Position numbers and translations under genes: made by a program. From Puniceicoccaceae bacterium (GTDB lineage: Bacteria; Verrucomicrobiota; Verrucomicrobiia; Opitutales; Coraliomargaritaceae), in NCBI GenBank assembly GCA_018402305.1, contig JAGYJE010000009.1, positions 58,282 to 122,281 on the forward strand: a DNA stretch of 64,000 nt. The letters run 5' to 3'. Under the pieces are notes generated by a model. The model worked only from the letters and a program-made list of their open reading frames with translations. It was not told the origin of the DNA and did no database searches. Position 1 is the first letter of the stretch; every line of letters starts with the position of its first letter. Positions 47,315 to 60,840 of this stretch are shown here, in pieces.

Positions 47315-47358
47315 GTCAGCAAAACTAGGTAATCGCCGTGGAACTTTCAATTCCTTTC

Positions 47359-48097: not shown

Positions 48098-48139
48098 GTG
48101 CGTAGGTTCGCACAAAAGTTTCGAAAGTCAAATTATTTT

Positions 48140-48245
48140 GATGAACGTCGAGAGTAGTCGATGCGAGCCTGTTGGGTCAATCGTGCACATGGTTCTCGGA
48201 TAATCCGGCGGGTGATCTCGCATTGACTATCTCGTCTGGATCAGG
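48140..48245 (-). other. attC of cassette S (106-bp class)
   Basis: Stem GAGTAGTCGATGCG / CGCATTGACTATCTC. Left box GATGAAC opens cassette T. Right box GATCAGG does not match the opening box of cassette S. Shares ATGGTTCTCGGAT with attC-Q. Confidence 0.8.
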
Positions 48246-48449
48246 TTCCGAACGTCCAGAATGCCCGGACCGATCAACTGCACCGATTCTCTGTATGCCC
48301 AGCAAAGCTGGGAACCGCTAATGTGCGCTAATTTACGCTTATGGGGTGATTTCATTTTTTTTTATTCCACGCATGAGAGGATAAGCGTCAATCAGCGTAA
48401 ATAAGCGGTGAAAAATACGTCTGAAAGGATTCTGTTTTTCGGTTTTCTT
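48246..48449 (-). other. Gene-less cassette S
   Basis: The 400-bp stretch between vapB and hicB holds only attC-S, this body and attC-R. No convincing ORF. It contains an inverted pair TTTACGCTTAT ... ATAAGCGTCAATCAGCGTAAAT, and ends in a 45-bp segment (48409-48455) also found near-identically at 46676-46725, beyond the last attC. Confidence 0.6.
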
Positions 48450-48516
48450 TCCCTGCGTGGAGGTGTATCACGCAGTGAGCAGCGCGAACGGAGTTGATAC
48501 CACCGACTGGCTATGA
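48450..48516 (-). other. attC of cassette R
   Basis: Stem GGTGTATCAC / GTTGATACCACC with extrahelical bases. Right box GCTATGA versus opening box TCATATC of cassette R: 6 of 7 complementary. Left box TCCCTGC. Confidence 0.85.
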
Positions 48517-48726
48517 CGCGACCTCAAGGTAGGCCGATTCCGAAGAGGGTTCGGGGATGGGGTATCCCTCTTCTTGCATTCCTTCCAAATGGAATTCGAT
48601 TGCCTCCCGCATGTTTGCCTCGACCTCGAGCCGGGTGGCACCGGTTGATACACATCCGAGGAGATCCGGAGAGTATGCGGAGAACCCAGTTTCAGTCTTC
48701 TCTATGATTATTAAATACTTATGCAT
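48511..48726 (-). CDS. hicB: HicB-type antitoxin (cassette R)
   Basis: 71 residues. YLIIIEKTETGFSAYSPDLLGCVSTGATRLEVEANMREAIEFHLEGM is the partial RNase H-like HicB fold. No C-terminal DNA-binding domain, i.e. the short form. It follows hicA by 14 bp, and its stop lies in the right box of attC-R. Confidence 0.9.
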   Translation of the reverse strand: MHKYLIIIEKTETGFSAYSPDLLGCVSTGATRLEVEANMREAIEFHLEGMQEEGYPIPEPSSESAYLEVAS

Positions 48727-48740
48727 GGCTAAGGATGGTT

Positions 48741-48926
48741 TTACTTTAATTGTGACTGCTTCAAGATACTGTTTTCCGTTCCGGGCGCAAGATCATCGCT
48801 CGGCTTTCCCGGCACTGTAACCAGACCTCTTTTCTGCGGGTGCTTATACTGCCTGTGGCTGCCCTTTGTGCGGTTGAGGGTCCATCCATCTGCTTCGATG
48901 AGGCGAATGATTTCTTTAACTTTCAT
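48741..48926 (-). CDS. hicA: HicA toxin (cassette R)
   Basis: 61 residues. KEIIRLIEADGWTLNRTKGSHRQYKHPQKRGLVTVPGKPSDDLAPGT has the dsRBD-like fold and the conserved GSHRQYKHP with the catalytic His of this mRNA interferase. Toxin-first order is normal for hicAB. The start is 7 bp from the cassette junction. Confidence 0.92.
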   Translation of the reverse strand: MKVKEIIRLIEADGWTLNRTKGSHRQYKHPQKRGLVTVPGKPSDDLAPGTENSILKQSQLK

Positions 48927-48932
48927 TCTTTT

Positions 48933-49036
48933 TCATATCGATGAGGCCAGGCACCCAGCCTGACGGGTTAGTGATTCAAATGGTTCTCGGATTTCCGGGC
49001 GAGTTACATGGGTTGACCTGTGCCGACTTGTTCAGC
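48933..49036 (-). other. attC of cassette Q (104-bp class)
   Basis: Stem GGCCAGGCACCCAG / GGGTTGACCTGTGCC. Right box GTTCAGC is the exact reverse complement of the opening box GCTGAAC; left box TCATATC opens cassette R. Confidence 0.88.
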
Positions 49037-49270
49037 TTTGAGTCGTTCAGACATCCAGACCTTCATTATGGACTGTCGTGTGACGCCAACACGCTTCGCT
49101 TCTTGATCCAACGAGTCAATCATCCAGTTTGGTAAGTCCAGGTTGACTCTTCTCTGTTCTAGGTTGGGTCTGAAAGCCTGATCAAGATTCAAGAATTCAG
49201 TGATGTCTTCGCCGTCGTCAAAACGGCGATCCAATTCCTCAGCTGTTATGGTATGTTCTTTTTTCGCCAT
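49004..49270 (-). CDS. brnA: BrnA-type antitoxin (cassette Q)
   Basis: 88 residues. ITAEELDRRFDDGEDITEFLNLDQAFRPNLEQRRVNLDLPNWMIDSLDQEAKRVGVTRQSIMKVWMSERL is a BrnA ribbon-helix-helix antitoxin. The start overlaps the end of brnT by 32 bp, and the last residues are encoded by attC-Q. Closely related to the second brnTA in cassette L. Confidence 0.9.
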   Translation of the reverse strand: MAKKEHTITAEELDRRFDDGEDITEFLNLDQAFRPNLEQRRVNLDLPNWMIDSLDQEAKRVGVTRQSIMKVWMSERLKAEQVGTGQPM

Positions 49271-49502
49271 TTCTCGCCCTTCTGCATGATATGATTCTTA
49301 TTTTCTTTTCTCGATAGGTAAATATGGCCGTCCAGAGTTTGCCCATGTAGGTGGCAATCAAAGCGCTACGAGGCTCGGTTTCGCTTCGTGCCGGAACTTC
49401 GAGGGCTGTCACATCCCTCCAAAGCTCCTGAACTTCGACGAAGTCGATTCCATGCTTTGCCTTGTTTTTTGCGGACTTCTCAGGGTCGAACTCAAAATCC
49501 AT
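49239..49502 (-). CDS. brnT: BrnT toxin (cassette Q)
   Basis: 87 residues. FEFDPEKSAKNKAKHGIDFVEVQELWRDVTALEVPARSETEPRSALIATYMGKLWTAIFTYREKKIRIISCRRARNGEKRTYHNS matches the BrnT RelE-like ribonuclease fold from start to end. Downstream brnA neutralises it and represses the operon in known systems. Confidence 0.92.
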   Translation of the reverse strand: MDFEFDPEKSAKNKAKHGIDFVEVQELWRDVTALEVPARSETEPRSALIATYMGKLWTAIFTYREKKIRIISCRRARNGEKRTYHNS

Positions 49503-49545
49503 AAAGGTATAATTATTGAATAATTATAGATTTCAATCTTTTTTT

Positions 49546-49601
49546 GCTGAACGGTGAGCTGTTGCACGGAGTGAGCGTTGACCACCGGCGACTGGATGGC
49601 A
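49546..49601 (-). other. attC of cassette P
   Basis: 56 bp, short class. Right box GATGGCA is the exact reverse complement of opening box TGCCATC; left box GCTGAAC followed by GGTGAGC opens cassette Q. Confidence 0.88.
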
Positions 49602-49856
49602 TCAGTAGTGGTATCGTAGCTGGGCGATGTGAATCTCATCTTTACTGATTCGATAAACCAGCCGATGCTCTTCATTAATTCTCCGAGACCAGAAGCCGGA
49701 TAGTGAATGCTTTAAGGGCTCGGGCTTGCCAATCCCCTCATGCTGGTTCCGATCAATATCCTTAATCAGTTCGTTTACTTTCTTGAGCATGCGCTTGTCA
49801 TTTTTCTGCCAGTATTGGTAATCCTCCCATGCTCGGTCTGAAAAGATTTTCTTCAT
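49602..49856 (-). CDS. yoeB: YoeB toxin (cassette P)
   Basis: 84 residues. IFSDRAWEDYQYWQKNDKRMLKKVNELIKDI ... GKPEPLKHSLSGFWSRRINEEHRLVYRI ... IHIAQLRYHY contains the RelE-fold catalytic Glu, Arg and His-Tyr end of YoeB ribosome-dependent RNases. Start overlaps the antitoxin stop (ATGA). The stop abuts the attC. Confidence 0.95.
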   Translation of the reverse strand: MKKIFSDRAWEDYQYWQKNDKRMLKKVNELIKDIDRNQHEGIGKPEPLKHSLSGFWSRRINEEHRLVYRISKDEIHIAQLRYHY

Positions 49857-50104
49857 TCAACCAGCACTCTTTCTTTGCCTTTCCCTTCCTCAAGCTGCTG
49901 GATCGATTCCAAGAGCCTGCGGGCATTCTTGGGGCTTCGCAGCAGATAGGTGGTCTCTTTCATCGATTCGTAATCCTCCAAAGACATCATCACCACAGAT
50001 TCGATGCCTTTCTTCGTGATGATCACCGGATCGTGATTGCGGCAGACTTCTGTGATCGTGTGCGCGAGGTTTTCTCTAGCGCTGGAATAAGTGATTGCGT
50101 TCAT
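49853..50104 (-). CDS. yefM: YefM/Phd antitoxin (cassette P)
   Basis: 83 residues from ATG 50104. AITYSSARENLAHTITEVCRNHDPVIITKKGIESVVMMSLEDYESMKETTYLLRSPKNARRLLESI is a full YefM. I reject the longer in-frame start at 50257 because it runs through attC-O. A perfect palindrome just upstream is a likely operator. Confidence 0.93.
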   Translation of the reverse strand: MNAITYSSARENLAHTITEVCRNHDPVIITKKGIESVVMMSLEDYESMKETTYLLRSPKNARRLLESIQQLEEGKGKERVLVE

Positions 50105-50107
50105 AGT

Positions 50108-50129
50108 GTTGTCCAATTTGTTGGACAAC
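50108..50129 (-). promoter_or_regulatory. Candidate YefM-YoeB operator palindrome
   Basis: GTTGTCCAA-TTTG-TTGGACAAC, perfect 9-bp arms, 4 bp upstream of the yefM start codon. Type II antitoxins bind such palindromes for autoregulation (family knowledge). Confidence 0.6.
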
Positions 50130-50154
50130 TTGGATCCTGTCAATTCATTTTTCC

Positions 50155-50223
50155 TGCCATCCGGGTGTATGCGCAGTGAGCGACGCAGGAGCGAACGGAG
50201 TTGATACGACCGTCTGGATATGG
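50155..50223 (-). other. attC of cassette O
   Basis: GGTGTATGCGCAGTGAGCGACG ... CGGAGTTGATACGACCGTC core. Left box TGCCATC opens cassette P. Right box GATATGG does not match the opening box TTAAATC of tiny cassette O. Confidence 0.8.
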
Positions 50224-50272
50224 ATTCCAAAGTGCCCGGTGGGGTCGAATCCGGCAAGTGCTTTCTCTTCCC
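50224..50272 (-). other. Gene-less mini-cassette O
   Basis: Only about 50 bp separate attC-O from attC-N, with no ORF. Either a deleted cassette or a spacer left by recombination between attC sites. Confidence 0.55.
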
Positions 50273-50329
50273 TTAAATCGGTTTGTTTGAGCGAAGCGAA
50301 CCGGAGTTAACTACCGCAACTGGTTCGCC
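50273..50329 (-). other. attC of cassette N
   Basis: 57 bp. Right box GTTCGCC is the exact reverse complement of opening box GGCGAAC of cassette N. The palindrome is weaker than in other sites; left box TTAAATC. Confidence 0.75.
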
Positions 50330-50332
50330 TTT

Positions 50333-50794
50333 TTAATTATAGAAAACAGGGTATACCGCCGCGAGCGTTTCATTTCGGAACGAATCGACATTCTGTGCCT
50401 TCTGCCCCATAAGGGATTCCGCACGTTTGATAAACTCAGAGACATAAATATCCGACTGTTTCTCTATAATTTCTCCGAGATGCTTTCCTTTATTTTCTAG
50501 TTCAGGATGTATCATGGACAAGAAGACTACACGCCAGAACCAGAAGCCCAATTTTGTAATCTCTTCGTTTGATTCACGCTGAACTCTTGTGAATAGTGGT
50601 CCAAGTTGGGCTATTCCCTTTTTTATATTTTCAGTTGCGGAATCGCGGTCCACCTGCAATAAATTGTCACAGAATGCAGCAGCGTCATCGTTAAATAAAA
50701 GCCTCCATGTTTCGGGGGTATTCTTTGCAGATGAGTGCAAAATATAAACATCTTCGCTGTTAGCTTTTGAGAATCTTTCGATCAAGTTATCCAA
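50333..50794 (-). CDS. Hypothetical protein (cassette N)
   Basis: 153 residues, mostly helical by composition (DNLIERFSKANSEDVYILHSS ... KLGFWFWRVVFLSMIHPELENKGKHLGEIIEKQSD). One hydrophobic stretch GFWFWRVVFLSMI near residue 83 is too short and too interrupted to be a clear membrane helix. No signal peptide and no recognised family. It is the only gene of its cassette. Low-GC composition compared with core genes suggests foreign origin. Confidence 0.6.
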   Translation of the reverse strand: MDNLIERFSKANSEDVYILHSSAKNTPETWRLLFNDDAAAFCDNLLQVDRDSATENIKKGIAQLGPLFTRVQRESNEEITKLGFWFWRVVFLSMIHPELENKGKHLGEIIEKQSDIYVSEFIKRAESLMGQKAQNVDSFRNETLAAVYPVFYN

Positions 50795-50853
50795 TTCGGA
50801 CTCGATCGCTCTTCTTCCGAGATTTTTTAGTAGCTTTTGAACATATTTTTAGT

Positions 50854-50924
50854 GGCGAACGGTGAGGATGAGCGCGACATGGAGGCGCAGCCGTAATGTC
50901 GTTGATCACTCCGTCTGGATGGTG
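50854..50924 (-). other. attC of cassette M
   Basis: Stem GCGACAT / ATGTCGTT. Right box GATGGTG is the exact reverse complement of opening box CACCATC; left box GGCGAAC + GGTGAGG opens cassette N. Confidence 0.88.
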
Positions 50925-51271
50925 CTTTTTAGTTTCTTCGAAATAGCGTCGAGGCGCTTATCGAGAGTCCACAACGGAGATTTACTAATCATCGAAGACG
51001 CCAAGATATGTGCATCCGTGTAGCCAATACCCTTCCCGTATAACTTGTTCGACTCTATGAGATGAGTTACTTCTCCATTTGATGCCTGTCGACACTGGGG
51101 GAGACTTTCTATCAGGTCTAAGAAGTTTTTTCGCTTCGATATGTTCCCAAGTCTCAACTCTCCGATGACAAACGGATGTGTTGAAACTTCCCCCTCATTC
51201 AGAAGATCCGAAAGCAGGGAATCGCCTTCCCGCAAGAAACCAATCCAGACAGAAGTATCGACCAGAACCAT
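50906..51271 (-). CDS. vapC: PIN-domain toxin VapC (cassette M)
   Basis: 121 residues. MVLVDTSVWIGFLREGD (first Asp), FVIGELRLG (Glu), GIGYTDAHILASSMI and LWTLDKRL complete the PIN acidic quartet. The start shares a base with the antitoxin stop (TAATG). The stop lies inside attC-M. Confidence 0.92.
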   Translation of the reverse strand: MVLVDTSVWIGFLREGDSLLSDLLNEGEVSTHPFVIGELRLGNISKRKNFLDLIESLPQCRQASNGEVTHLIESNKLYGKGIGYTDAHILASSMISKSPLWTLDKRLDAISKKLKSTIQTE

Positions 51272-51453
51272 TACCGACGAGGGATATTCTGAGCTTTAGG
51301 AGAGGTGCCGCCAAGCATAGCTAAGCGCCTTGCACTTTCCTTTTCGATAAGTGTTTTGAGACCTTCGTGAAGTAAGAGGGTCTTTTCTTTTATTCCAGTG
51401 AGTTTTGAGGCTTTCTCGAATATTTTCTCGTCAAGATTTAATGTAGTTCTCAT
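51271..51453 (-). CDS. vapB: VapB antitoxin (cassette M)
   Basis: 60 residues. MRTTLNLDEKIFEKASKLTGIKEKTLLLHEGLKTLIEKESARRLAMLGG is the standard VapB ribbon-helix-helix plus toxin-binding tail. Upstream of and overlapping vapC. Confidence 0.92.
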   Translation of the reverse strand: MRTTLNLDEKIFEKASKLTGIKEKTLLLHEGLKTLIEKESARRLAMLGGTSPKAQNIPRR

Positions 51454-51496
51454 GCATAAAGATATGCATAAAATGTTCGCATCTGCAAGTGGTTTT

Positions 51497-51787
51497 TCAC
51501 CATCGGTGAGAGTGAGCGCGGCGGATGCCGTTGCTCACCTCGCCTTGTTCGACTTTGATTCTTTCGGATATCCAGACCTTCATAATTGACTGTCGTGTAA
51601 CGCCGATTCGCTTCGCTTCCGTATCAAGCGAGTCAATCATCCAATTCGGTAGGTCGACATTCACGCGACGCTGTCCAAGATTGGGACGATGTGCCTTCTT
51701 GGTGTCCAAAAACTCTGAAATGTCTTCACCTGCGTCAAAGCGCCGGTCGAGTTCTTTAGCTGTTATGGTAGATTCTTTTTTCGCCAT
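51497..51787 (-). CDS. brnA: BrnA-type antitoxin (cassette L)
   Basis: 96 residues: ITAKELDRRFDAGEDISEFLDTKKAHRPNLGQRRVNVDLPNWMIDSLDTEAKRIGVTRQSIMKVWISERIKVEQ, a BrnA. The last 18 or so residues (after VEQGE) are encoded by attC-L itself, and the stop codon is at the left edge of the site. Overlaps brnT by 32 bp, like the cassette Q copy. Confidence 0.9.
   Translation of the reverse strand: MAKKESTITAKELDRRFDAGEDISEFLDTKKAHRPNLGQRRVNVDLPNWMIDSLDTEAKRIGVTRQSIMKVWISERIKVEQGEVSNGIRRAHSHRW
51498..51553 (-). other. attC of cassette L
   Basis: 56 bp. Stem GAGTGAGC / GTTGCTCACCTC. Right box GTTCGAC is the exact reverse complement of opening box GTCGAAC; left box CACCATC + GGTGAGA opens cassette M. 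Confidence 0.9.
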
Positions 51788-52019
51788 CTCGTGCCCTCCT
51801 ACATGATATGATTCTTATTTTTCCTTCTCTTCGGGTGAATATCGCAGTCCATAGCTTCCTCGAATGTCTGGCGATTAAAGCCTCGCGTGGCTCGGTTTCA
51901 CTTCGGGCAGGTAACTCAAGGGCGGTTACATCCGCCCAAAGCTCCTGCGCTTCCACAAAATCGATTCCATGCTTTTCCTTGTTTTTTGCCGACTTCTCAG
52001 CATCGAACTCGAAATCCAT
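51756..52019 (-). CDS. brnT: BrnT toxin (cassette L)
   Basis: 87 residues, same length and about four-fifths identical by eye to the cassette Q BrnT (FEFDAEKSAKNKEKHGIDFVEAQELWADVTALELPARSETEPREALIA...). A RelE-like ribonuclease of the BrnTA family. Having two related copies raises the question of cross-neutralisation. Confidence 0.92.
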   Translation of the reverse strand: MDFEFDAEKSAKNKEKHGIDFVEAQELWADVTALELPARSETEPREALIARHSRKLWTAIFTRREGKIRIISCRRARDGEKRIYHNS

Positions 52020-52060
52020 AATGGTATAATTATGGTTTAATTTCGGATTTCAAGTTTTTT

Positions 52061-52125
52061 GTCGAACGGTGAGCGTAGTCATGGAGCGAGGCACGAGCGG
52101 AATTGACTACCGCGTCTTGATATGC
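52061..52125 (-). other. attC of cassette K (the DGR cassette)
   Basis: 65 bp. Stem GTAGTCAT / ATTGACTAC. Right box GATATGC (52119-52125) is the exact reverse complement of GCATATC at 55188-55194, which opens the cassette. Left box GTCGAAC + GGTGAGC opens cassette L. Confidence 0.92.
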
Positions 52126-52223
52126 CCCGCGGAGACTCCGTAAAGGCTTTGTAAGTCTTGACCAATCCACTTCACTGCGCGGGTTCATTTTTTCCTGCTT
52201 TTATTCTTTTCCTTAGAAAAAAT

Positions 52224-52269
52224 CCCCGGCCACGTCGTTCGGCGTTTCGCCTACTTGCCGTGGCCGGGG
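52224..52269 (-). terminator. Terminator of the DGR cassette, double hairpin
   Basis: 11-bp stem CCCCGGCCACG / CGTGGCCGGGG enclosing a second hairpin GGCG-TTT-CGCC. On the minus strand it is followed by ATTTTTT. It lies about 130 bases after the TR and overlaps the end of the RT reading frame. Could also define the 3' end of the TR RNA. Confidence 0.75.
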
Positions 52270-53585
52270 GCGGGTTCTTTGCCCGGAGGGATGGAGGCCT
52301 CCGCGCGGGAGTGCCGGGTGCCTTCCCGAAGCGGCGCGGCGGCGGGGGCGATGCACCCCGGCCGTTCTGGCCGATCAGGCTGGAGGGCCTGTCCGAAGGC
52401 TGGAGACGCGGAATCCGATGTTGTTGTTCTCGTTGGTCGGATTGTTGTTGTTGCGGTTCGAGGACTGCAGGTTGTTGTCGTTGTTGTTGAACGAGCCGCC
52501 CCGCAGCCCGCGGTTACTGGTGTCCCAGCACCCCAAAGTTCGATGTCGCGAAAGATGTCCCGCCGCAGGCGGTAGCTCTGCGCGTGGCTGGCATGGGCGA
52601 TCCAGCTGCGAGTGCGCTGCCGCAGGTCAGTCAGATCCATGCGCCCGGTGCGCACACACCAGGCTTGCCGCTTAAAGCGCCGCACGAAGCGGCGGACATT
52701 GGCATCGCGCAGGCGGATGCGCCCGTCTGGAAACACAACGAAACCGACAAAATCGACCCCGCGCTCCGTCGCCGTAAGCCGGAACTTATCCGGGTGGATG
52801 CGCAGGCGCAGCGACTGCACATACTCCCGCACCCGCTGGCCCTGAGCCTTCAGAGCGGAGCGGTCGTCACCAAACAGTAGAAAGTCATCCACATAGCGCA
52901 GGTAGCCCTTGACCCGTAGCTCGTGCTTGACGAAGAGGTCGAGGGGATGCAGGTGGATGTTGGCGAAAAACTGGCTGGTCAGGTTACCGATGGGGAGTCC
53001 GCGTGGATGCTCGACAACGCTGAAGAGATCACCCGCATCCGACCATTCCTGTGCAATGCCGTCAGTATGGCTGGCGAGGATGCGGTCGATGACTTCAAGC
53101 ACGCGGCGGTCGCCCACCGCCCGCTCGATCTGTTGGCGCAGCAGCGCATGGTCGATATGAGGAAAATATTTCTGGATGTCGCACTTCAGGCAGTAGCGGT
53201 AGCGCTTGGTAAACTGATGGGCGCGGGCCAGCCCGGCGTGAGTGCCCTTGCCGGGGCGGCAAGCGTAGGAGTCTGCGATAAACCGTGGGTCAAAGATCGG
53301 CTCCAGCACGCGCACGAGGGCGTGATGCACGATGCGGTCGCGAAAGGGCGCGGCGGCCACCTCGCGCTCCTTCGGATCGGTGATGGTGAAGTAGAAATAC
53401 TCCCCCGGCTGCCAGGTGCCCGCGACGAGATCATCGCGCACACCGACCACCGCCTTTTCCAATTCGCCGAAGCAACGCGCCACAGGGATCTTGCCTCGCT
53501 TGCCCCGCATCGCCTTGTGCGCGGCGGCGAACAGGTTCTCCAGCGCGACGACTTGCCCAAACAGATGCTTGTGGCGCTTCGGCAT
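52251..53585 (-). CDS. DGR-type reverse transcriptase
   Basis: 444-residue frame. RT motifs: KCDIQKYFPHIDH (first catalytic Asp, about 136), LPIGNLTSQFFANI (about 197-210; the IGxxxSQ form is diagnostic of DGR enzymes, where retroviral and group II RTs have QG), YLRYVDDFLLFG (catalytic YVDD, 231-234) and a thumb with RIHPDKFRLT...GVDFVGFVV. The recognisable protein ends near residue 345 (DIELWGAGTPV). The remaining 100 residues are translated from the TR and spacer and are Thr/Pro-rich (e.g. ARSTTTTTT), so the frame may simply lack a stop. It copies TR RNA with errors at adenines. SD AAGGAGG lies in the avd end, 6 bp before the ATG. Confidence 0.95.
   Translation of the reverse strand: MPKRHKHLFGQVVALENLFAAAHKAMRGKRGKIPVARCFGELEKAVVGVRDDLVAGTWQPGEYFYFTITDPKEREVAAAPFRDRIVHHALVRVLEPIFDPRFIADSYACRPGKGTHAGLARAHQFTKRYRYCLKCDIQKYFPHIDHALLRQQIERAVGDRRVLEVIDRILASHTDGIAQEWSDAGDLFSVVEHPRGLPIGNLTSQFFANIHLHPLDLFVKHELRVKGYLRYVDDFLLFGDDRSALKAQGQRVREYVQSLRLRIHPDKFRLTATERGVDFVGFVVFPDGRIRLRDANVRRFVRRFKRQAWCVRTGRMDLTDLRQRTRSWIAHASHAQSYRLRRDIFRDIELWGAGTPVTAGCGAARSTTTTTTCSPRTATTTIRPTRTTTSDSASPAFGQALQPDRPERPGCIAPAAAPLREGTRHSRAEASIPPGKEPAPGHGK
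52397..52522 (-). repeat. DGR template repeat (TR), 126 bp
   Basis: Aligns without gaps to 54167-54292. All 20 differences are at A on the minus strand; none of the other 87 positions differ. 39 adenines are present, mostly in AAC codons: in the variable-protein frame it would read GGSFNNNDNNLQSSNRNNNNP then TNENNNIGF. It lies inside the 3' part of the RT reading frame, read there in another frame. Confidence 0.97.
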
Positions 53586-53591
53586 GGAAAG

Positions 53592-53942
53592 TCAGCCCTC
53601 CTTCACACTCCGCAGCCACCCGCCCAGCATTTTTCCGCATTCCGTGAGCTGTTCGGCGCTGTATTCGTATTGACGCGGCGTGATGACTTTGCGGTCTTTC
53701 GCCAGGCGGGTCAGCCAGCGCAATTGCTCCAGCTTGACGTTGGCGCGGTGCAGCAGGCTGGCCTTGTGGTGGGTGTAGCTGGCCTCGATGAGCAATTCCA
53801 TAATGTCGAGGGTCGTGTCGGCCAGGCGCGTGCCAAAGATGAATCGCTGGTTCTTGGGGAAGCTGTCCACCCGCTCCAGCAACCATTTGGTGTGTTCATA
53901 CCAGCGCACCAGCAGCACCGGTGCTTCCGGTTTTCGGGCCAT
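53592..53942 (-). CDS. avd: Avd, DGR accessory variability determinant
   Basis: 116 residues, basic and all-helical, four-helix-bundle type: LVRWYEHTKWLLERVDSFPKNQRFIFGTRLADTTLDIMELLIEASY...LLHRANVKLEQLRWLTRLAKDRKVITPRQYEYSAEQLTECGKMLGGWLR. In known DGRs Avd forms a pentamer that binds RT and the TR RNA and is needed for mutagenic cDNA synthesis. Placed between the variable-protein gene and RT, 6 bp from the RT start, as in classic cassettes. Confidence 0.92.
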   Translation of the reverse strand: MARKPEAPVLLVRWYEHTKWLLERVDSFPKNQRFIFGTRLADTTLDIMELLIEASYTHHKASLLHRANVKLEQLRWLTRLAKDRKVITPRQYEYSAEQLTECGKMLGGWLRSVKEG

Positions 53943-53952
53943 GCTCGGGTTT

Positions 53953-53980
53953 AAAAAAAATTTTCGACCGCCTTCGGCGG
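53953..53980 (-). other. Hairpin with T-tract just upstream of avd
   Basis: CCGCC-TTC-GGCGG; on the minus strand it is followed by TCGAAAATTTTTTTT. Eleven bases before the avd start. A weak terminator or processing site. Confidence 0.5.
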
Positions 53981-54011
53981 AAAGAGTGCGGGGACCTCAC
54001 GGCCCCCGCAG

Positions 54012-54045
54012 AAAAGAAAAAAGGGAAGCGGCGCTAACGCGCCGC
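54012..54045 (-). terminator. Terminator after the variable-protein gene
   Basis: GCGGCGC-GTTA-GCGCCGC (54028-54045) followed on the minus strand by TTCCCTTTTTTCTTTT. A third hairpin, TGCGGGG ... CCCCGCA, lies at 53987-54010. Confidence 0.7.
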
Positions 54046-54069
54046 GATAAAGGGTAAAAGGGCCAAAGG

Positions 54070-55020
54070 CTAAAGGATGCCGCGCCCTTTTCGCCTCGTC
54101 AGTGCCAGCGAGAGTCCAAGGCAACCTAAGATCGCAGCGTAAGCGGACGGTTCAGGAATGGGCGCGAGGCTGGAGACGCGGAATCCGAAGCTGATGAGCT
54201 CGAGGGTCGGATTGGAGTTGTTGCGGGCCGAGGACTGCAGGAGGAAGTCGAAGTCGTTGAACGAGCCGCCCCGCAGCCCGCGGAGACTGGTGCTCACAAT
54301 AGCATCATTCCACTCCCACACGTTACCGCCCTGATCGAAGGTGCCGTAGTGGCTGTCGGACCCCGTGTAGGCACCCACGTCGGTCACAGTGCCGGGGCCA
54401 CCGGAAAAATTCGCGCTGTTGGCGCCGCCAGGAGGGTTTTCTGCCGTCGGTGCCGTGTCACTCTGCGTCGGATACAGCGTATAACCACCGTTTCCGTCGT
54501 AATACGCTGCCTTATACCACTCGTTCTCGCTGGCGACGGCGACACCGCCGTTGTTCCAGGCCGTCGCGTTGCGGGTGATCGTGTTGTTCGAGATGCCGGT
54601 TGCATCCAGCACGTATACGCCTTTCTCGGTATTGCCTGTCGACAGCCAGTTGCTGAAGCGCGCCGCGTCCCAGAAGCTAACGAAGTTTACTGGCTTGTTG
54701 CCGAAGCCGTCCTTCACGCTGTAACTAAAGCTGCCGGAGGTGCCCGACTGGTTGATACCACCATGGGTATTGGAGCCCATGTCCGTGTTGTAGAGCGAGT
54801 GCGTGTCCGTCACCGCCGTCGCGTTCAAGAAGGCCGTGTATTGGCTGTTCGTCACCTCATAGGTGCCGATGTGGTAATTGTAGCCGATCCCGCCGTAGCC
54901 AGTAGTGCTGTCGTTGGCGTTGCCCGCATCGCCGACTAGGACGGTGTCGATGTTGATGGCGGCCGAAGCGGCGGAAGCGGCTAGCAGGCCAGCTGCGAAA
55001 AGGGCAATGTGTTTTTTCAT
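54070..55020 (-). CDS. DGR variable protein: secreted FGE-sulfatase/C-type-lectin-fold domain with PEP-CTERM anchor
   Basis: 316 residues. Signal peptide about 1-20 (ALFAAGLLAASAASA). Residues about 25-285 are a formylglycine-generating-enzyme/SUMF1-like domain: YHIGTYEVTNSQYTAFLNA, KPVNFVSFWDAARFSNWLS, ASENEWYKAAYYDG, FDQGGNVWEWNDAI, LRGGSF. Its C-terminal 42 or so residues are the VR (about 243-285). Directly after comes IPEPSAYAAILGCLGLSLAL plus TRRKGR, a PEP-CTERM exosortase signal. In known DGRs this fold presents the hypervariable residues on a ligand-binding face. Here 12 of the sites are N-to-D/F/L/A/S/I and one I-to-F change relative to TR. An exosortase must be encoded elsewhere. 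Confidence 0.95.
   Translation of the reverse strand: MKKHIALFAAGLLAASAASAAINIDTVLVGDAGNANDSTTGYGGIGYNYHIGTYEVTNSQYTAFLNATAVTDTHSLYNTDMGSNTHGGINQSGTSGSFSYSVKDGFGNKPVNFVSFWDAARFSNWLSTGNTEKGVYVLDATGISNNTITRNATAWNNGGVAVASENEWYKAAYYDGNGGYTLYPTQSDTAPTAENPPGGANSANFSGGPGTVTDVGAYTGSDSHYGTFDQGGNVWEWNDAIVSTSLRGLRGGSFNDFDFLLQSSARNNSNPTLELISFGFRVSSLAPIPEPSAYAAILGCLGLSLALTRRKGRGIL
54167..54292 (-). repeat. DGR variable repeat (VR), 126 bp
   Basis: Same length as TR; 106 of 126 identical, all 20 changes at TR adenines. The changes fall mostly in the first two positions of AAC codons, giving L, D, F, F, L, A, S, L, L, I, S at former Asn positions. The 3' end (GATTCCGCGTCTCCAGCCT on the minus strand) is unchanged and should hold the initiation-of-mutagenic-homing site. 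Confidence 0.97.
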
Positions 55021-55075
55021 AGTGATGTGTTTTTGATAATTGTAGTTTTTAACGATGATTTTTTATCTATGCCGA

Positions 55076-55095
55076 GGGTGGGGGGAGGGGGGGGG
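55076..55095 (+). repeat. G-tract in the leader of the DGR variable-protein gene
   Basis: GGG-T-GGGGGG-A-GGGGGGGGG, about 55 bases upstream of the variable-protein ATG (C-tract on the coding strand). It holds nine consecutive G and could slip or form a quadruplex. Confidence 0.7.
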
Positions 55096-55187
55096 CAAGT
55101 GTAAAAACACGGAGATTGTGAAAATTTCGTTACGCGGCGAGACGCTTGCATTCGTGAAAGATCTTTGTGGTTCATTTTTTTTCTTTG

Positions 55188-55291
55188 GCATATCGTAAAG
55201 CGTGATCACCCAGTCAGCGAGCTTGGACTTTCTGAAATGTTCCCGGCAAACTGGCGGCGTAAAATGGGTTGATCACCGCGTCTTGATCGGC
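55188..55291 (-). other. attC of cassette J (104-bp class)
   Basis: Stem CGTGATCACC / GGTTGATCACCGCG with one extrahelical base. Right box GATCGGC versus opening box GTCGATC: 6 of 7. Left box GCATATC opens DGR cassette K. Confidence 0.88.
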
Positions 55292-55762
55292 TCATTCGAT
55301 TCTTAAGTTGATCTCGATGTAGAAGATGCTCTCACCATTCAACTCTAGTTCTTCGAAATACCGATTTTCGTCGGAAGGAAGCAGTTCTGATTTATCGTAG
55401 TGAAGCGGTCTATCGTAGAAACTAGAGCTGTCTTTCTTTTGAGTTTTTATCCGTAATTCGGTAATATTTTGCTTACGGTTCGATAGGTGATAACCTGGGT
55501 AATTGTAGATGAAAATTTCTATCTCGCGGCTATCGCTTCCGTCAATTACGGTAGTCTCGAAATCTGAGTTCTTATCAAACCGAGCCTGTACAATTAACTT
55601 TTCTTTCTTCCCGATTGAGACCTTTTTATAGGATCCGTGCAGGCCTAGCAGTTCTGCCTGTTTTTTCGTGAATTCGTTATCCGTTTTTGGCGCTTTCAGT
55701 TGCTGCCAAGCGTTCAGTTGGCAAGTTACAGAAAGTAGCAGAATTAGTAATAGCGGTTTCAT
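55292..55762 (-). CDS. Secreted hypothetical protein (cassette J)
   Basis: 156 residues from ATG 55762, which lies 9 bp inside the cassette; the longer frame to 55831 runs through attC-I. Signal peptide about 1-19 (KPLLLILLLSVTCQLNA). The mature part is charged, beta-rich by composition (KVSIGKKEKLIVQARFDKNSDFETTVIDG, ELELNGESIFYIEINLRIE). No family recognised; orphan cassette gene likely exported to the periplasm. Confidence 0.65.
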   Translation of the reverse strand: MKPLLLILLLSVTCQLNAWQQLKAPKTDNEFTKKQAELLGLHGSYKKVSIGKKEKLIVQARFDKNSDFETTVIDGSDSREIEIFIYNYPGYHLSNRKQNITELRIKTQKKDSSSFYDRPLHYDKSELLPSDENRYFEELELNGESIFYIEINLRIE

Positions 55763-55771
55763 TATTTTATG

Positions 55772-55845
55772 TCGATCGGTGAGATGTGGCACGGAGTGAG
55801 CGACGAAGGAGCGAACGTAGTTGTCCACCATCGACTTGTTGGAGT
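55772..55845 (-). other. attC of cassette I
   Basis: Stem TGTGGCAC / GTTGTCCACC. Right box GTTGGAG versus opening box CACCAAC: 6 of 7. Left box GTCGATC + GGTGAGA opens cassette J. Confidence 0.88.
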
Positions 55846-55846
55846 T

Positions 55847-56581
55847 TCATTCTTCAAACGTTAGGGGCTCGACCATCACCTTGAAAAATGCTGAGGACTC
55901 TGACTCAGACAACTGATAAGTCTTAAATAGTGAAGACACATAGCTATTCCCTTGTAGTGAATTCGAACCTGCATCGGGGACTTCAAACCATTGGGACAGA
56001 TTATAACTCACCATCAGCTTTTGTGAGTAACCGGAAGAGGCTGAAAAAGATACGTCGATGAATTCATTTCTCTGTTCAATCTGCATTTCCTTTTCTTCAA
56101 GAGCTGGCGTGTATGCCCAATACCCGAGAATCTTCCCGTAAGTATCAGTGCCGATTCCCCATATGCCACCATATTCTGAGGCTGACCAATCCCCTTCCAC
56201 TGAGATCGTGAAATCCCGATAAAAAACCATTCCGTCGCCATAGTCTAAAAGCTTCGATCCATCCCAAAGGATTTCTTGAAAATCGAAGAGCTCAGAAAGA
56301 GTCGTCACTGGATCTGTCGATTCACGTCTCGATACTGAAAAGATGCGATGCCTGTCAAAACTGTGAGACAGCCAACGATCCGTAAAGTTAAAGATGCGCA
56401 ATTCTTGGCTCGGGATGTCGAATATGAAAAAAGCAGGTTCTTCACTCTGAATAGCCACGACAGGGAACTCTGCCGAAGGAAAACCGGTTGAGGTATAATC
56501 AAACTGGCCAGTGATTTGATTGGCCTTGAGTGCGCCTACAATTGCGAACAATAGCAGAGTAAATTTCTTTATTTTATTCAT
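55847..56581 (-). CDS. Secreted protein with C-terminal Verrucomicrobia-type module (cassette I)
   Basis: 244 residues. Signal peptide about 1-20. The N-terminal two thirds are beta-rich (FPVVAIQSEEPAFFIFDIPSQELRIFNF). The C-terminal part, QKLMVSYNLSQWFEVPDAG ... SSAFFKVMV, resembles the short domain that ends many Verrucomicrobia exported proteins (S-x-DLxxW ... FFR). Its ATG is only one base from the recombination box, so the ribosome-binding region must come from the neighbouring attC. Function unknown. Confidence 0.65.
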   Translation of the reverse strand: MNKIKKFTLLLFAIVGALKANQITGQFDYTSTGFPSAEFPVVAIQSEEPAFFIFDIPSQELRIFNFTDRWLSHSFDRHRIFSVSRRESTDPVTTLSELFDFQEILWDGSKLLDYGDGMVFYRDFTISVEGDWSASEYGGIWGIGTDTYGKILGYWAYTPALEEKEMQIEQRNEFIDVSFSASSGYSQKLMVSYNLSQWFEVPDAGSNSLQGNSYVSSLFKTYQLSESESSAFFKVMVEPLTFEE

Positions 56582-56582
56582 T

Positions 56583-56651
56583 CACCAACGTCGAGGATGA
56601 TCACGTAGAGGAGCGCAGCGACTCGGAGTTGATCACTCCGCCTTGATCGCT
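56583..56651 (-). other. attC of cassette H
   Basis: TGATCA-containing stem arms (GATGATCACG / GTTGATCAC). Right box GATCGCT is the exact reverse complement of opening box AGCGATC; left box CACCAAC opens cassette I. Confidence 0.88.
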
Positions 56652-57008
56652 CTGATTCCTCGGGACGTGAGGGAGTGTGAAATACATCACCGACTCCTTC
56701 TTGAAGAGAAAGTAGAGAGCCAATGCACACAAAGGCAAAAATGGACTGCCCAACGTTATGAAGAAGTAGGTGATGGCTGTAACCCAAGCCCATTTCTTTG
56801 CTTCTCTTAATTTCTTGCCTGCGATAAGGCCTAAAATTCCGAGGGCGACAAAAACAACCGAATAGATTATTTTTTCATTCAATGTGTTGGAGTTTGACGC
56901 ACTGAAAAATGCAAGTGGAGGCAAAGCCAACATGAGCACTGATTCTATCCACAAAAGAACCGAGCAGTATTTGATGCCTTTGGTTGGTGGATGTCGAAAT
57001 TCCTTCAT
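56601..57008 (-). CDS. Multi-pass membrane protein (cassette H)
   Basis: 135 residues with four hydrophobic segments (about 13-35, 46-64, 72-90, 93-106) and a basic KKLREAKKWAWV loop. The C-terminal 25 residues (PRNQSDQGGVINSESLRSST) are encoded by attC-H. No family recognised. An orphan cassette gene, start 9 bp from the junction. Confidence 0.6.
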   Translation of the reverse strand: MKEFRHPPTKGIKYCSVLLWIESVLMLALPPLAFFSASNSNTLNEKIIYSVVFVALGILGLIAGKKLREAKKWAWVTAITYFFITLGSPFLPLCALALYFLFKKESVMYFTLPHVPRNQSDQGGVINSESLRSST

Positions 57009-57016
57009 TTATTTTC

Positions 57017-57146
57017 AGCGATCGTGGAGATGAGGCACCGATACAGCGGTAAGCGGTGCTGGGATTGGAATCAGGGTGGTCGGAATTTCTGTAAAGGTCA
57101 ATCGCGCGGCGGCTGTATCGGTTGTTCCTCAATCGTCTTGTTCTGG
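57017..57146 (-). other. attC of cassette G (130-bp class)
   Basis: Stem ACCGATACAGC / GCTGTATCGGT; almost identical to attC-D. Left box AGCGATC opens cassette H. Right box GTTCTGG does not match the cassette G opening box AATCATC. Confidence 0.88.
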
Positions 57147-57151
57147 CTTAT

Positions 57152-57853
57152 TCAATTCGGTGGCTGTTGAAGTCTGTAGAACTTTCTCGGATTCGAAATT
57201 TCGAAAAAGTATTTTTTCGTGGTTCCATCGCCTTCAACATCAATGATGATGGGATCCCAGTTCTCTAAGTCTGTTGACTCTTCTATAGAATATGTGCTCC
57301 CAATTTTCGAGTCAAACCTGAGTAGCACTGCTGTTTCGATTGTTAATTGAGATTTTTTTTCATGGGGTACTGTCGAGAATGTAATAGAATCTGTATTTTC
57401 ACCAGCTCCCCAAGTGTAGCTAACGGTGTTGTTCTCAGTGACTCCAAGTGTTGCAAAAGTGTGACCCGAAAAAGTAAGGGTTCCGCTTATCGAATCACCC
57501 GATGTATAACCTTTAGGCAGCCATAGGCTTGGGTACCCCGTCATAACTCCAAAGACATCTCCAGCGGCGGAACCAGTCGCACCTGTCCCAGTTCCCATTG
57601 AACCCGATACTCTTAAGTTTGAAATTCCCCAGAAGTCGCAATTACCACCTGCCGAAATGTCGTTATCTAATGGTTCTATATCAGTATTAGCAATTCCTTC
57701 GCCTTCATAGGATAACTCTGTGGTGTTAATAAAACCTTTATAGGTAAAGATAACATCATTTCCGACTTCTTGGCCTGTTATTAAAACGGCGGCAGCGCAC
57801 GGTGCCGTAGAGGCAATTAATATTAAGGCGCGGATTGCTGACTTTATTTTCAT
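57152..57853 (-). CDS. Secreted protein with C-terminal DLENW...FYRL module (cassette G)
   Basis: 233 residues. Signal peptide about 1-22. The middle contains a PEP-CTERM-protein-like beta domain (NCDFWGISNLRVSGSMG, GYPSLWLPKGYTSGDSISGTLTFSG), and the end reads STDLENWDPIIIDVEGDG ... PRKFYRLQQ, the Verrucomicrobia extracellular module also seen in cassettes C and I. No PEP-CTERM anchor of its own. Function unknown; probably an exported structural or adhesive protein. Confidence 0.7.
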   Translation of the reverse strand: MKIKSAIRALILIASTAPCAAAVLITGQEVGNDVIFTYKGFINTTELSYEGEGIANTDIEPLDNDISAGGNCDFWGISNLRVSGSMGTGTGATGSAAGDVFGVMTGYPSLWLPKGYTSGDSISGTLTFSGHTFATLGVTENNTVSYTWGAGENTDSITFSTVPHEKKSQLTIETAVLLRFDSKIGSTYSIEESTDLENWDPIIIDVEGDGTTKKYFFEISNPRKFYRLQQPPN

Positions 57854-57869
57854 AATTTAATATTCTCAG

Positions 57870-57930
<61 letters not shown>

Positions 57931-57931
57931 T

Positions 57932-58426
57932 TTAGCTTCTGAATGACCAATACCAAAGGTCATCGAAGATTTTAAGTATCTCTGGGTTTGGTCTCTTCTT
58001 TTCATCTTCATCCTCAGCTTTCGTATCTTCTTTCTTTGGTGCTGCTGAAGGATCAAAGTAGTATATGATCATCTCTGCTTTGCTCACCCACTTGTGGAAG
58101 TAGAGTCCTATCTGGCTATCTCTCAGAATAACCAACCTCACACCATGCTTTTTGAATGCCGGTGGCCAGTCTTCTTCTCTTTCGGTAAGCCTCCCGATCT
58201 CAAGGTGAGGTTTCAATTCTTTAACCGCTGGTAAAATCTCTGAGTGAAACGATTCCTCAATTGTATCAATAATCTTTTCTCTCTTTGCTACATATCGCCG
58301 CATCTGCTCTTCGTATAGCTGCCTTTTGTATAGCTTGAATGCTTCAGACTCAGTGAACGGAACTTTCTCCTCAGCAATACAGCTAAAAGCTATCAGAAAT
58401 GCTATTATGCTTATTATGGCTTTCAT
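57932..58426 (-). CDS. Secreted charged protein (cassette F)
   Basis: 164 residues. Signal peptide about 1-18 (IISIIAFLIAFSCIA). The mature protein is a charged helix-rich region (KLYKRQLYEEQMRRYVAKREKIIDTIEE), then GVRLVILRDSQIGLYFHKWVSKAEMIIYYFDP and a lysine/glutamate-rich low-complexity tail. No family recognised. Confidence 0.6.
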   Translation of the reverse strand: MKAIISIIAFLIAFSCIAEEKVPFTESEAFKLYKRQLYEEQMRRYVAKREKIIDTIEESFHSEILPAVKELKPHLEIGRLTEREEDWPPAFKKHGVRLVILRDSQIGLYFHKWVSKAEMIIYYFDPSAAPKKEDTKAEDEDEKKRPNPEILKIFDDLWYWSFRS

Positions 58427-58437
58427 TTCATTCCGTT

Positions 58438-58508
58438 TTCGAACGATAAGCTGTCACATGGAGTGGAGGCGGAGCCGTAACGGAATTGTGACTAGCGCCT
58501 TGATAGAG
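58438..58508 (-). other. attC of cassette E
   Basis: Stem GTCACAT / ATTGTGAC with one extrahelical A. Right box GATAGAG is the exact reverse complement of opening box CTCTATC; left box TTCGAAC opens cassette F. Confidence 0.9.
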
Positions 58509-58514
58509 TCCTGT

Positions 58515-58877
58515 TTAGTCGATGGTCACCTTAGCAGTTCCTTTTGCTCTTGGCCTAAATCTTTCATCGTTCCTCTCGAAGATTAAATGCTCTCCTGCCG
58601 TGAAAAGAACATCGACTGCCCCCTCTATTCTTAGAGAAGCAATTTCGCCTTCAGCCATGGTATTTCTGTAAAGTTCCTCCGACGTCGCTTTTTCTTTCAC
58701 TAACACGTAAACATTTCCGGTAGCTCGGATAATGAGAAGATCGTCAACTTTCTCGGGCTGCGCCGAGCTTATGCTATTTTCTTCCTCTTGAGTCATCTGT
58801 GGCTGCACGTGATCGGTTGTGGTGCACCCGGCTAAAATGACAAAGGCAGCAAGAATTATAATTTGTTTCATTTTCAT
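58515..58877 (-). CDS. Small lipoprotein (cassette E)
   Basis: 120 residues from ATG 58877 (3 bases inside the cassette). Lipobox-type leader KQIIILAAFVILAGCTTTD, lipidated Cys near residue 18. The rest is a compact beta domain (DDLLIIRATGNVYVLVKEKATSEELYRNTMAEGEIASLRIEGAVDVLFTAGEHLIFERNDERFRPRAKGTAKV). The pattern of a small SH3-like or RodZ-C-terminal-like domain (ATGNVYVLVKEK...GEIASLRIEGAVDVLFTAGEHL) is suggestive. Outer-membrane location expected; function unknown. Confidence 0.7.
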   Translation of the reverse strand: MKMKQIIILAAFVILAGCTTTDHVQPQMTQEEENSISSAQPEKVDDLLIIRATGNVYVLVKEKATSEELYRNTMAEGEIASLRIEGAVDVLFTAGEHLIFERNDERFRPRAKGTAKVTID

Positions 58878-58879
58878 TT

Positions 58880-59009
58880 CTCTATCGTGGAGATGAGGCA
58901 CCGATACAGCGGTAAGCGGTGCTGAGATTGGAATCAGAGTGGTCAGTATTCCTGTAAAGGTCAATCACGCGGCGGCTGTATCGGTTGTTCCTCAATCGAA
59001 TTGTTCTGC
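58880..59009 (-). other. attC of cassette D (130-bp class)
   Basis: Stem ACCGATACAGC / GCTGTATCGGT. Right box GTTCTGC is the exact reverse complement of opening box GCAGAAC; left box CTCTATC opens cassette E. Confidence 0.92.
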
Positions 59010-59509
59010 CTCAAGTTCTCTTTTGCTTTGGTTAAGAACTCTTCAATTTGTTCTCTTTGGTGCCCTTCAACTAAGTCCATGGGTCTTGCAACGTATTCAC
59101 TCGAAAATGGGTTTCTTTTCAATATCCATACCCAGAGTGTGTCTTCTTTAACTACAGGGGAATCTCTATATCGCTCTGGATATATTATTTTAACCAGTCC
59201 GACTTTATCTGGTTGGATGCTGCTGGAAGATTCAATTTTAGGGAACGTAAACTTTCGTTCGTAGGTAGGCGGAATCCGGAAATTCCATTCTTCCACGTGT
59301 ATGAATACAAAAATTCTGCCGCCTAGGTAATGTTGGATACTGTCTCTCTGGTTTCCTCTGGCAGTATGGTAGTGAAACCTTTCATTTGCTTCCTTTAGGA
59401 CGCCCACGACCACATAGTCTGCTTCGTCCAAATCGTCTTCTATTGTAGGACCGGTTGTAGCACCAAGAATCAAAGGCGTCATTAGAAGGGCTAGTGCTAT
59501 AATCTTCAT
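58961..59509 (-). CDS. Secreted hypothetical protein (cassette D)
   Basis: 182 residues from ATG 59509. Signal peptide about 1-16 (IIALALLMTPLILG). The mature part has DEADYVVVGVLKEANERFHYH and IFVFIHVEEWNFRIPPTYERKFTFPKIESS, reading as a beta-rich exported domain. The last 16 residues (NSIEEQPIQPPRD) are encoded by attC-D. GAAAGAAAAA before the ATG is a weak purine-rich leader. No family recognised. Confidence 0.6.
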   Translation of the reverse strand: MKIIALALLMTPLILGATTGPTIEDDLDEADYVVVGVLKEANERFHYHTARGNQRDSIQHYLGGRIFVFIHVEEWNFRIPPTYERKFTFPKIESSSSIQPDKVGLVKIIYPERYRDSPVVKEDTLWVWILKRNPFSSEYVARPMDLVEGHQREQIEEFLTKAKENLRQNNSIEEQPIQPPRD

Positions 59510-59519
59510 TTTTTCTTTC

Positions 59520-59592
59520 GCAGAACGTAGAGGAGTATCACGGAGTGAAGCGCGGAGCGCGAAACGGAGTTGATACAATTGACTTGTTGGAC
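59520..59592 (-). other. attC of cassette C
   Basis: Stem GTATCAC / GTTGATAC with one extrahelical A. Right box GTTGGAC is the exact reverse complement of opening box GTCCAAC; left box GCAGAAC opens cassette D. Confidence 0.92.
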
Positions 59593-59601
59593 CTCGTGTT
59601 T

Positions 59602-60834: not shown

Positions 60835-60840
60835 TTTTTC

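What the first reader, a model, noticed from the sequence alone, without database searches (positions are those of the whole stretch)
52067..55193. A complete diversity-generating retroelement packaged as one integron gene cassette
Variable protein with VR, Avd, DGR reverse transcriptase and TR lie between two attC sites. The opening box GCATATC (55188) and its attC box GATATGC (52119) are perfect reverse complements, exactly as in 12 other cassettes of the array, and no attC occurs inside. A DGR that can be excised, shuffled and captured by an integron integrase would combine two diversification engines: cassette exchange and adenine-targeted hypermutation. I do not know of a described case; novelty is my inference.
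Basis: partly seen in the sequence, partly recalled or inferred. Interest (0 to 1): 0.97.

Follow-up and report, generated by a model that had tools for sequence, protein, structure and literature searches.

The report
Hypermutation retroelement as integron gene cassette
One gene cassette in a bacterial integron consists of a complete diversity-generating retroelement, whose variable gene segment differs from its template only at adenines; because the cassette lies between the integron's recombination sites, the integron is predicted to be able to cut it out and move it, so the mutator would spread the way resistance cassettes do.

Summary
Window 52067-55193 (3127 nt, minus strand) is one cassette in an array of about 20 attC sites. 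It holds an FGE-domain target with VR, Avd, a DGR reverse transcriptase and TR; all 20 TR/VR differences lie at TR adenines. Both flanking attC sites score with a model built without them (57.1 and 29.3 bits), none lies inside, and the opening box matches the cassette's own attC box exactly. Such matches are 12 of 18 in the array, against at most 6 in 100,000 shuffles. An intact integron integrase lies on another contig. A second MAG carries the same cassette (same attC box, identical TR, different VR) followed by a different cassette. In a third genome, of another genus and without a detected RT match, a target-only gene sits between two attC sites, the downstream one 59/65 identical to the DGR's. 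The window genome holds four further target copies and a second TR, but no other full-length relative of this RT was found. Excision, capture and trans-diversification are inferred. Of the papers found, one (2012) speculates about DGRs using integrons; none reports a case. Preprints were not searchable.

The parts
52067..55193 (-). the DGR gene cassette, 3127 nt (reads from 55193 down to 52067)
   Evidence: box complementarity, attC model
54070..55020 (-). target gene, 316 aa, FGE-sulfatase domain; PEP-CTERM-like tail named from recall
   Evidence: PF03781 76.6 bits, cut-off 23.3
54167..54292 (-). variable region VR
   Evidence: 20 of 20 differences from TR at TR adenines, P 8e-13
53592..53942 (-). 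avd accessory gene
   Evidence: NF033474 112.1 bits, cut-off 80; PF22296; 4dwl
52251..53585 (-). DGR reverse transcriptase ORF, 444 aa; RT-like part about the first 355 aa, the open frame runs on through TR
   Evidence: PF00078; YVDD and IGNLTSQ, no QGxxxSP; best solved relative 8ub7, E 1e-47
52397..52522 (-). template repeat TR (39 adenines of 126)
52217..52270 (-). terminator-like hairpin with T run, where homology with the attC-less C75 copy ends
   Evidence: read by eye and the alignment; not listed by the scan
52061..52125 (-). attC at the end of the DGR cassette (R'' 52125-52119; its R' 52067-52061 beyond the G belongs to the next cassette)
   Evidence: R1 57.1 bits, E 5e-15, held out of the model
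55188..55291 (-). attC of the preceding cassette; its R' (55194-55188) opens the DGR cassette
   Evidence: R1 29.3 bits, E 1.3e-6, held out of the model
46762..62895 (-). the cassette array: 20 curated attC sites plus one found by the model at 50155-50223

Best explanation
A complete diversity-generating retroelement (target gene with VR, Avd, reverse transcriptase, TR) forms one gene cassette of an integron array, and the integron integrase is predicted to excise and re-insert it as a unit. Shown: the cassette anatomy, adenine-only TR/VR differences, and the same cassette with a different VR and a different downstream neighbour in a second genome. Inferred: the RT copies TR into error-prone cDNA that rewrites the VR of its own target, a predicted secreted and surface-anchored FGE-fold protein, and likely also the VRs of target copies elsewhere in the genome, where no other full-length relative of this RT was found. 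Also inferred: excision by IntI as a circle, capture at attI or attC, and separate spread of targets as cassettes (a target-only gene between attC sites exists in a third genome).
For: Opening box equals the cassette's own attC box; 12 of 18 boundaries perfect in the array versus 1 of 362 non-own pairs and at most 6 in 100,000 shuffles. Both flanks found by a model that left them out, none inside. Intact IntI in the genome: TIGR02249 352 bits, cut-off 265; 2a3v E 1e-72. Avd, DGR-type RT motif and adenine-only TR/VR differences. L038: same attC box, L arms and cassette end, different next cassette, TR identical 126/126, VRs differ at 25 positions. L125: target-only gene between attC sites of 37.7 and 50.1 bits, the latter 59/65 identical to the DGR attC. 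Other VRs of the same genome differ from TR mostly at adenines: C10 19/19, C6 22/23, C75 21/23, C2 26/30.
Against: No junction reads or assay: excision and capture are untested. IntI is on contig C15, whose link to this array is not shown: no end overlap and no attC match in the first 6 kb of C15. The upstream attC scores modestly (29.3 bits) and R1 misses or barely sees three long-loop sites of the array. Single-strand folding of the integrated DGR flanks is no better than shuffles. In L038 avd and the RT start are lost, its upstream attC is not on the contig, listed coverage is 0.94, and its bin has 6% contamination. In L125 the upstream box does not match its own R''. The genome is 90.39% complete, so another RT could be missing.
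Confidence: 0.86

Rival explanations
1. Passenger reading: the DGR entered an existing cassette or the array by homologous recombination, and the unit between the two attC sites is not an excisable cassette today.
For: Related target genes and a DGR remnant lie elsewhere in the genome without attC (C6, C2, C75), and the C10 copy is nearly identical to the cassette in its 3' half including the VR, so recombination between copies happens. GC 60% against 45-47% for the rest of the array.
Against: Recombination would not make the opening box match the DGR's own attC box; the same DGR end, tail and attC occur together in L038 with another neighbour.
Confidence: 0.09
2. Assembly or binning artefact: the DGR was wrongly joined into the array.
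For: The genome is fragmented (76 contigs) and holds similar target copies on C10, C6, C2 and C75.
Against: The DGR lies inside a 122-kb contig with array attC sites on both sides, and an independent assembly (L038) shows the same DGR-attC junction.
Confidence: 0.03
3. The RT belongs to a group II intron inserted at an attC site, a known association.
For: RTs next to attC sites in sister genomes include a group II intron maturase: the L019 RT scores 393 bits on TIGR04416, cut-off 300. Literature: PMC7923331 (abstract), PMC4424553 (passages).
Against: This RT scores 133 bits on TIGR04416, under the cut-off of 300, has IGNLTSQ and no QGxxxSP, and comes with Avd and an adenine-mutated TR/VR pair.
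Confidence: 0.01

Closest known systems
Bordetella phage BPP-1 DGR (parts recalled; brt record AY029185.2)
   Same: target with VR, Avd, TR and a related RT (32%); adenine-specific differences
   Different: there on a phage with a tail protein target (recalled); here an integron cassette with an FGE-domain target
Plasmid DGR with SUMF1-type target, avd and RT (Vibrio sp. 0908 p0908, NC_010113.1)
   Same: same gene order target-avd-RT and same target family name
   Different: RT 33.5% identical; lies among phage-like genes; attC was not searched there
Gene cassettes of chromosomal integrons
   Same: attC boundaries, box complementarity, toxin-antitoxin cassettes as neighbours
   Different: 3.1 kb, three genes and a template RNA region; carries a mutator
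Group II introns at attC sites (PMC7923331, PMC9229058, PMC4424553)
   Same: a reverse-transcribing element tied to integrons
   Different: introns insert into attC sites by themselves; here the element is the cassette content and does not disrupt an attC
DiGReF 2012 (PMC3521204) suggestion for Vibrio sp. RC586
   Same: DGR on a mobile element; [quoted passage not shown]
   Different: a suggestion near Tn7 sequences without attC evidence; here the attC-bounded cassette is seen

Membership tests
Diversity-generating retroelement | RT of DGR type ([ILV]GxxxSQ, YxDD; motif knowledge recalled) | tested here: met
   IGNLTSQ at 199, YVDD at 231, QGxxxSP absent
Diversity-generating retroelement | Avd accessory protein | tested here: met
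   NF033474 over cut-off
Diversity-generating retroelement | TR/VR repeat with differences at TR adenines | tested here: met
   20 of 20
Diversity-generating retroelement | VR at the end of a C-type-lectin/FGE-like domain | tested here: met
   PF03781 spans residues 48-282; VR ends at the end of it. The fold itself was not confirmed (model pLDDT 46)
Diversity-generating retroelement | mutagenic retrohoming | not testable with these tools
   VR divergence from an identical TR in two genomes is indirect support
Integron gene cassette | attC at the end of the unit and one before it, none inside | tested here: met
   with the two flanks held out
Integron gene cassette | opening bases complementary to its own R'' | tested here: met
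   7 of 7; array 12 of 18
Integron gene cassette | attC hairpin in the excised form | tested here: inconclusive
   re-joined site folds R and L stems as expected, but z is only -1.25 and -1.08 against shuffles
Integron gene cassette | integron integrase in the genome | tested here: met
   C15, TIGR02249 over cut-off
Integron gene cassette | integrase in cis with this array | tested here: inconclusive
   contig ends before it; no overlap with C15, no attC match in C15:1-6000
Integron gene cassette | found with other neighbours | tested here: met
   L038: other downstream cassette; upstream side not on that contig
Integron gene cassette | recombination by IntI | not testable with these tools
   needs reads or an assay
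Group II intron at attC | group II RT/maturase (TIGR04416 over cut-off; QGxxxSP) | tested here: not met
   133 bits, cut-off 300; motif absent

The most novel reading that the evidence does not exclude
A two-part mobile hypermutation system spread by integrons: a mutator cassette (target, Avd, RT, TR) and separate target-only cassettes that circulate without it. One cassette-borne RT serves several variable genes scattered in the genome in trans, so that gain or loss of a single cassette switches a whole receptor family's diversification on or off.
Probability: 0.35. Interest if true: 0.96.

Novelty: new variant of a known kind. Interest (0 to 1): 0.9.

Why it matters
Integrons shuffle genes; DGRs rewrite them. 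Joining the two makes hypermutation itself a capturable cassette and gives DGRs, which are said to hitchhike on phages, plasmids and transposons (PMC3521204), a further concrete vehicle. It also makes an old question testable: how cassettes arise. The same genome holds the DGR with an attC (C76) and a related, decayed DGR without one (C75), and their homology ends at the same terminator-like hairpin about 90 nt before the attC.

Tried and rejected
Rfam gave no match at the attC sites (gathering threshold; only a tRNA). Two pattern scans for attC were too loose and served only for reading. Folding of the integrated DGR flanks is no better than shuffles (z 0.71 and 0.88, 1.15 and -0.75); of two other sites one is (site 12, z -2.54) and one is not (site 1, z 0.23). 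The structural case therefore rests on the model and on complementarity, not on energies. R1 misses the long-loop sites at 58880-59009 and 57017-57146 and gives the one at 47359-47488 only 10.9 bits; its best off-array match in the window is 13.2 bits. The promoter and terminator scan gave counts like shuffles and supports nothing. The structure prediction of the target came out at mean pLDDT 46 and was not used (38 of the 120 listed proteins were aligned). R1 found no attC in 23 RT-bearing loci of other lineages, but R1 is tuned to this lineage, so that negative says little; tblastn with this IntI found none in the RT loci given to either. In 17 further loci of the order, 10 with related RTs (Avd found in 2 of them) and 7 with RT or target fragments, no attC match below E 0.1; some contigs are short (L098 is 3033 bases). 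R1 does find attC in 9 of 9 genomes of the order tried (9 of the 10 other genomes with an RT match, G047 left out). Viral contigs gave one distant RT, best attC match 14.5 bits, E 0.11. Considered and rejected: group II intron; artefact; DGR merely recombined into the array.
Full report
WHAT IS THERE. On the minus strand the window carries a cassette array from 62895 down to 46762, next to a tRNA-Arg gene (46593-46669). I curated 20 sites; the model later added one at 50155-50223, just past the truncated site at 50329. A site has R'' (7 nt), a 5-nt spacer, an L'' arm, a variable loop, L', a 5-nt spacer and R'. Between 55193 and 52067 lies one unit of 3127 nt with three genes, all minus: a 316-aa target (FGE-sulfatase domain, PF03781, then a PEP-CTERM-like tail that I name from recall), avd (NF033474, over cut-off) and a reverse transcriptase (PF00078; YVDD; IGNLTSQ). 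TR (52397-52522) lies inside the 3' end of the RT open frame; VR (54167-54292) lies at the end of the FGE domain. TR and VR differ at 20 of 126 positions, all 20 at TR adenines (39 A in TR; hypergeometric P 8e-13). GC is 60% in the cassette, 45-47% in the rest of the array and 56% in the rest of the window.

IS IT A CASSETTE. Three tests. (1) In an integron the bases that open a cassette come from its own attC, so they should be complementary to the R'' at its far end (recalled rule). Of 18 boundaries that can be tested, 12 match 7/7, 4 match 6/7, 2 match 2/7; the DGR is one of the 12. Of 362 non-own pairings 1 matches 7/7, and 100,000 shuffles reach at most 6 of 18. I placed the R' and R'' boxes by eye and pattern before counting, which favours matches somewhat. 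(2) A covariance model R1 was built from 12 other short-loop sites, leaving out both DGR flanks and 6 further curated sites. It scores the DGR's own attC at 57.1 bits (E 5e-15) and the upstream one at 29.3 bits (E 1.3e-6) and finds nothing inside; its best off-array match in the window is 13.2 bits, and it misses two long-loop sites of the array and nearly misses a third. (3) The genome has an intact integron integrase on C15 (TIGR02249, 344.8 bits, 352, cut-off 265); its best solved relative is 2a3v, IntI4. C15 starts about 750 bases before intI in an orientation that would fit the end of C76, but the contig ends do not overlap and no attC matches in C15:1-6000, so the link is not shown. Two short intI pieces lie near attC clusters on C12 and C34.

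RELATIVES. RT searches covered 56 related genomes, 372 genomes of the order and one scan of named genome contigs. The nearest RT (95%) is on a 3259-base contig of MAG Verrucomicrobia bacterium GSL.Bin9 (L038; L014 is the same stretch as held for G005). There target, RT, TR, terminator-like hairpin and attC are homologous up to the crossover, and then a different cassette gene follows. R1 scores its attC at 49.8 bits. TR is identical, 126 of 126, although the surrounding DNA is 76-94% identical by segment; the two VRs differ at 25 positions, and L038's VR differs from TR at 16, all adenines. So both copies appear to have been diversified from one conserved template. Against over-reading: this contig has listed coverage 0.94, its bin has 6% contamination, it starts at a poly-C run before the upstream attC would appear, avd is replaced by a small ORF that looks GIY-YIG-like (my reading, not searched) and the RT start is lost, so this copy is probably inactive.

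A TARGET-ONLY GENE BETWEEN attC SITES. A search of 43 genomes of the family for 23 bases of the DGR attC (up to 3 mismatches) gave 6 places in 5 genomes. One, in G024 (another genus), is L125: a target homologue (309 aa, 69%) with no avd or RT match, between attC sites of 37.7 and 50.1 bits. The downstream attC is 59/65 identical to the DGR attC, whereas 12 other attC sites of the window are 52-64% identical to it. Its VR differs from TR at 27 aligned positions, 22 of them adenines, with 3 gap columns. G024 (listed 99% complete) has no RT match; it has two matches over the integrase cut-off, one with a stop inside. Against: the box before it (GTTCGAG) does not match its own GCATATC, and a 52-base direct repeat (51 of 52) flanks the gene, so its history is not simple.

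THE SAME GENOME HAS MORE TARGETS. TR as query finds 2 TRs (C76, C75) and 5 VRs (C76, C75, C10, C6, C2). Differences from the C76 TR at adenines: C76 20/20, C10 19/19 (one base missing, frame broken), C6 22/23, C75 21/23 (6 gap columns), C2 26/30. C6 and C2 are complete target genes (P0010, P0006) with no TR and no attC match below E 0.04 in the stretches fetched. C75 has its own TR but an Avd/RT fusion remnant with most of the RT gone, and no attC match on its contig. C10 is a truncated copy beside an attC; its 3' half, VR included, is almost identical to the cassette's. The cassette RT is the only full-length match in this genome (90.39% complete, so another could be missing). That it serves the other VRs in trans is inference. 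Across 43 family genomes, targets at E 1e-50 or better occur in 3: G000 (5), G005 (1), G024 (1).

HOW IT LIKELY WORKS. Shown: anatomy, adenine-only differences, two copies with different neighbours. Inferred from known DGRs: RT with Avd copies TR RNA with errors at A, and the cDNA replaces VR. Inferred from known integrons: IntI excises the unit at G|ATATGC and inserts it at attI or attC. Inferred from sequence only: the target is secreted and anchored by an exosortase (two PF09721 genes). The DGR ends in a terminator-like hairpin, where homology with the attC-less C75 copy also stops, and the attC follows about 90 nt later. Group IIC introns are reported to insert at terminators and attC sites (PMC4424553, passages; a paper in its reference list, by its title, proposes a role in cassette formation), and RTs lie near attC sites in sister genomes, one of them tested as a group II maturase, so an intron-mediated origin of the cassette is an idea to test. 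No other RT matched in this genome.

WHAT IS KNOWN. Literature searches: (20 of 32 listed); open-licence PMC only, no bioRxiv, most subscription journals absent. None of the listings or passages seen shows a DGR in an integron cassette. [quoted passage not shown] Passages seen in PMC4891356, PMC11054128, PMC9229058, PMC12926258, PMC4424553 and PMC8144416; abstract and outline of PMC7923331. The 2021 global DGR survey PMC8144416 does not contain the word integron. No paper held both 'diversity-generating retroelement' and 'PEP-CTERM'. A report on the subject could exist unseen.

VERDICT. Confirmed and extended. Each half is a known kind; the union appears new in what I could search. Control: in 10 further loci of the order with related RTs none has an attC match below E 0.1, although R1 finds attC in 9 of 9 genomes of the order tried, so cassette carriage looks like the exception.

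Noticed in passing
window 46762-62895: Many attC sites have GAT/ATC instead of GTT/AAC at the crossover box: of 19 sites with an R', 10 begin GTT, 7 GAT, 2 neither; of 20 R'' 11 end AAC, 8 ATC, 1 AGC. The DGR cassette is of the GAT type.
   Followed up: partly
window 52251-53585: The RT open frame runs on through TR; the RT frames of L038 and the C75 remnant also run through their TRs.
   Followed up: no
L013 9640-11650 (G000:C75): A second, decayed DGR: target, Avd fused to the C-terminal part of RT, and a TR that differs from the cassette TR at 2 non-adenine positions.
   Followed up: partly
L121 12642-14039 (G000:C10): A truncated, frame-shifted target copy beside an attC; its 3' half including VR is almost identical to the cassette's, its 5' half about 85%.
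   Followed up: partly
L122 7285-7410 and L013 9953-10728: Marker bases of the two TRs appear swapped among VRs: the C6 VR carries the C75-TR base at position 18 but the C76-TR base at 112; the C75 VR the reverse, a hint of cross-templating.
   Followed up: no
L038 1074-1337: A small ORF that looks GIY-YIG-like sits where avd and the RT start would be in the GSL.Bin9 copy.
   Followed up: no
L105, L106, L107: Genomes of a sister genus keep only the first 36-48 residues of this RT, 57-83% identical: decayed copies or a retained piece.
   Followed up: no
L125 221-272 and 1446-1497: A 52-base direct repeat (51 identical) flanks the target-only gene of G024.
   Followed up: no
window 61170-62811: One cassette holds two opposed genes, one resembling DNA methyltransferases (104 bits to CcrM, far below its cut-off) and one without a family match.
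   Followed up: no
window 47484-52019: Toxin-antitoxin cassettes crowd this end of the array: BrnT/CopG, YoeB/YefM-like, VapC-like.
   Followed up: no
G000 contigs C12, C34, C10, C25, C45: Further attC sites on many contigs (44 matches in the genome), with 3' pieces of intI beside the C12 and C34 clusters.
   Followed up: no
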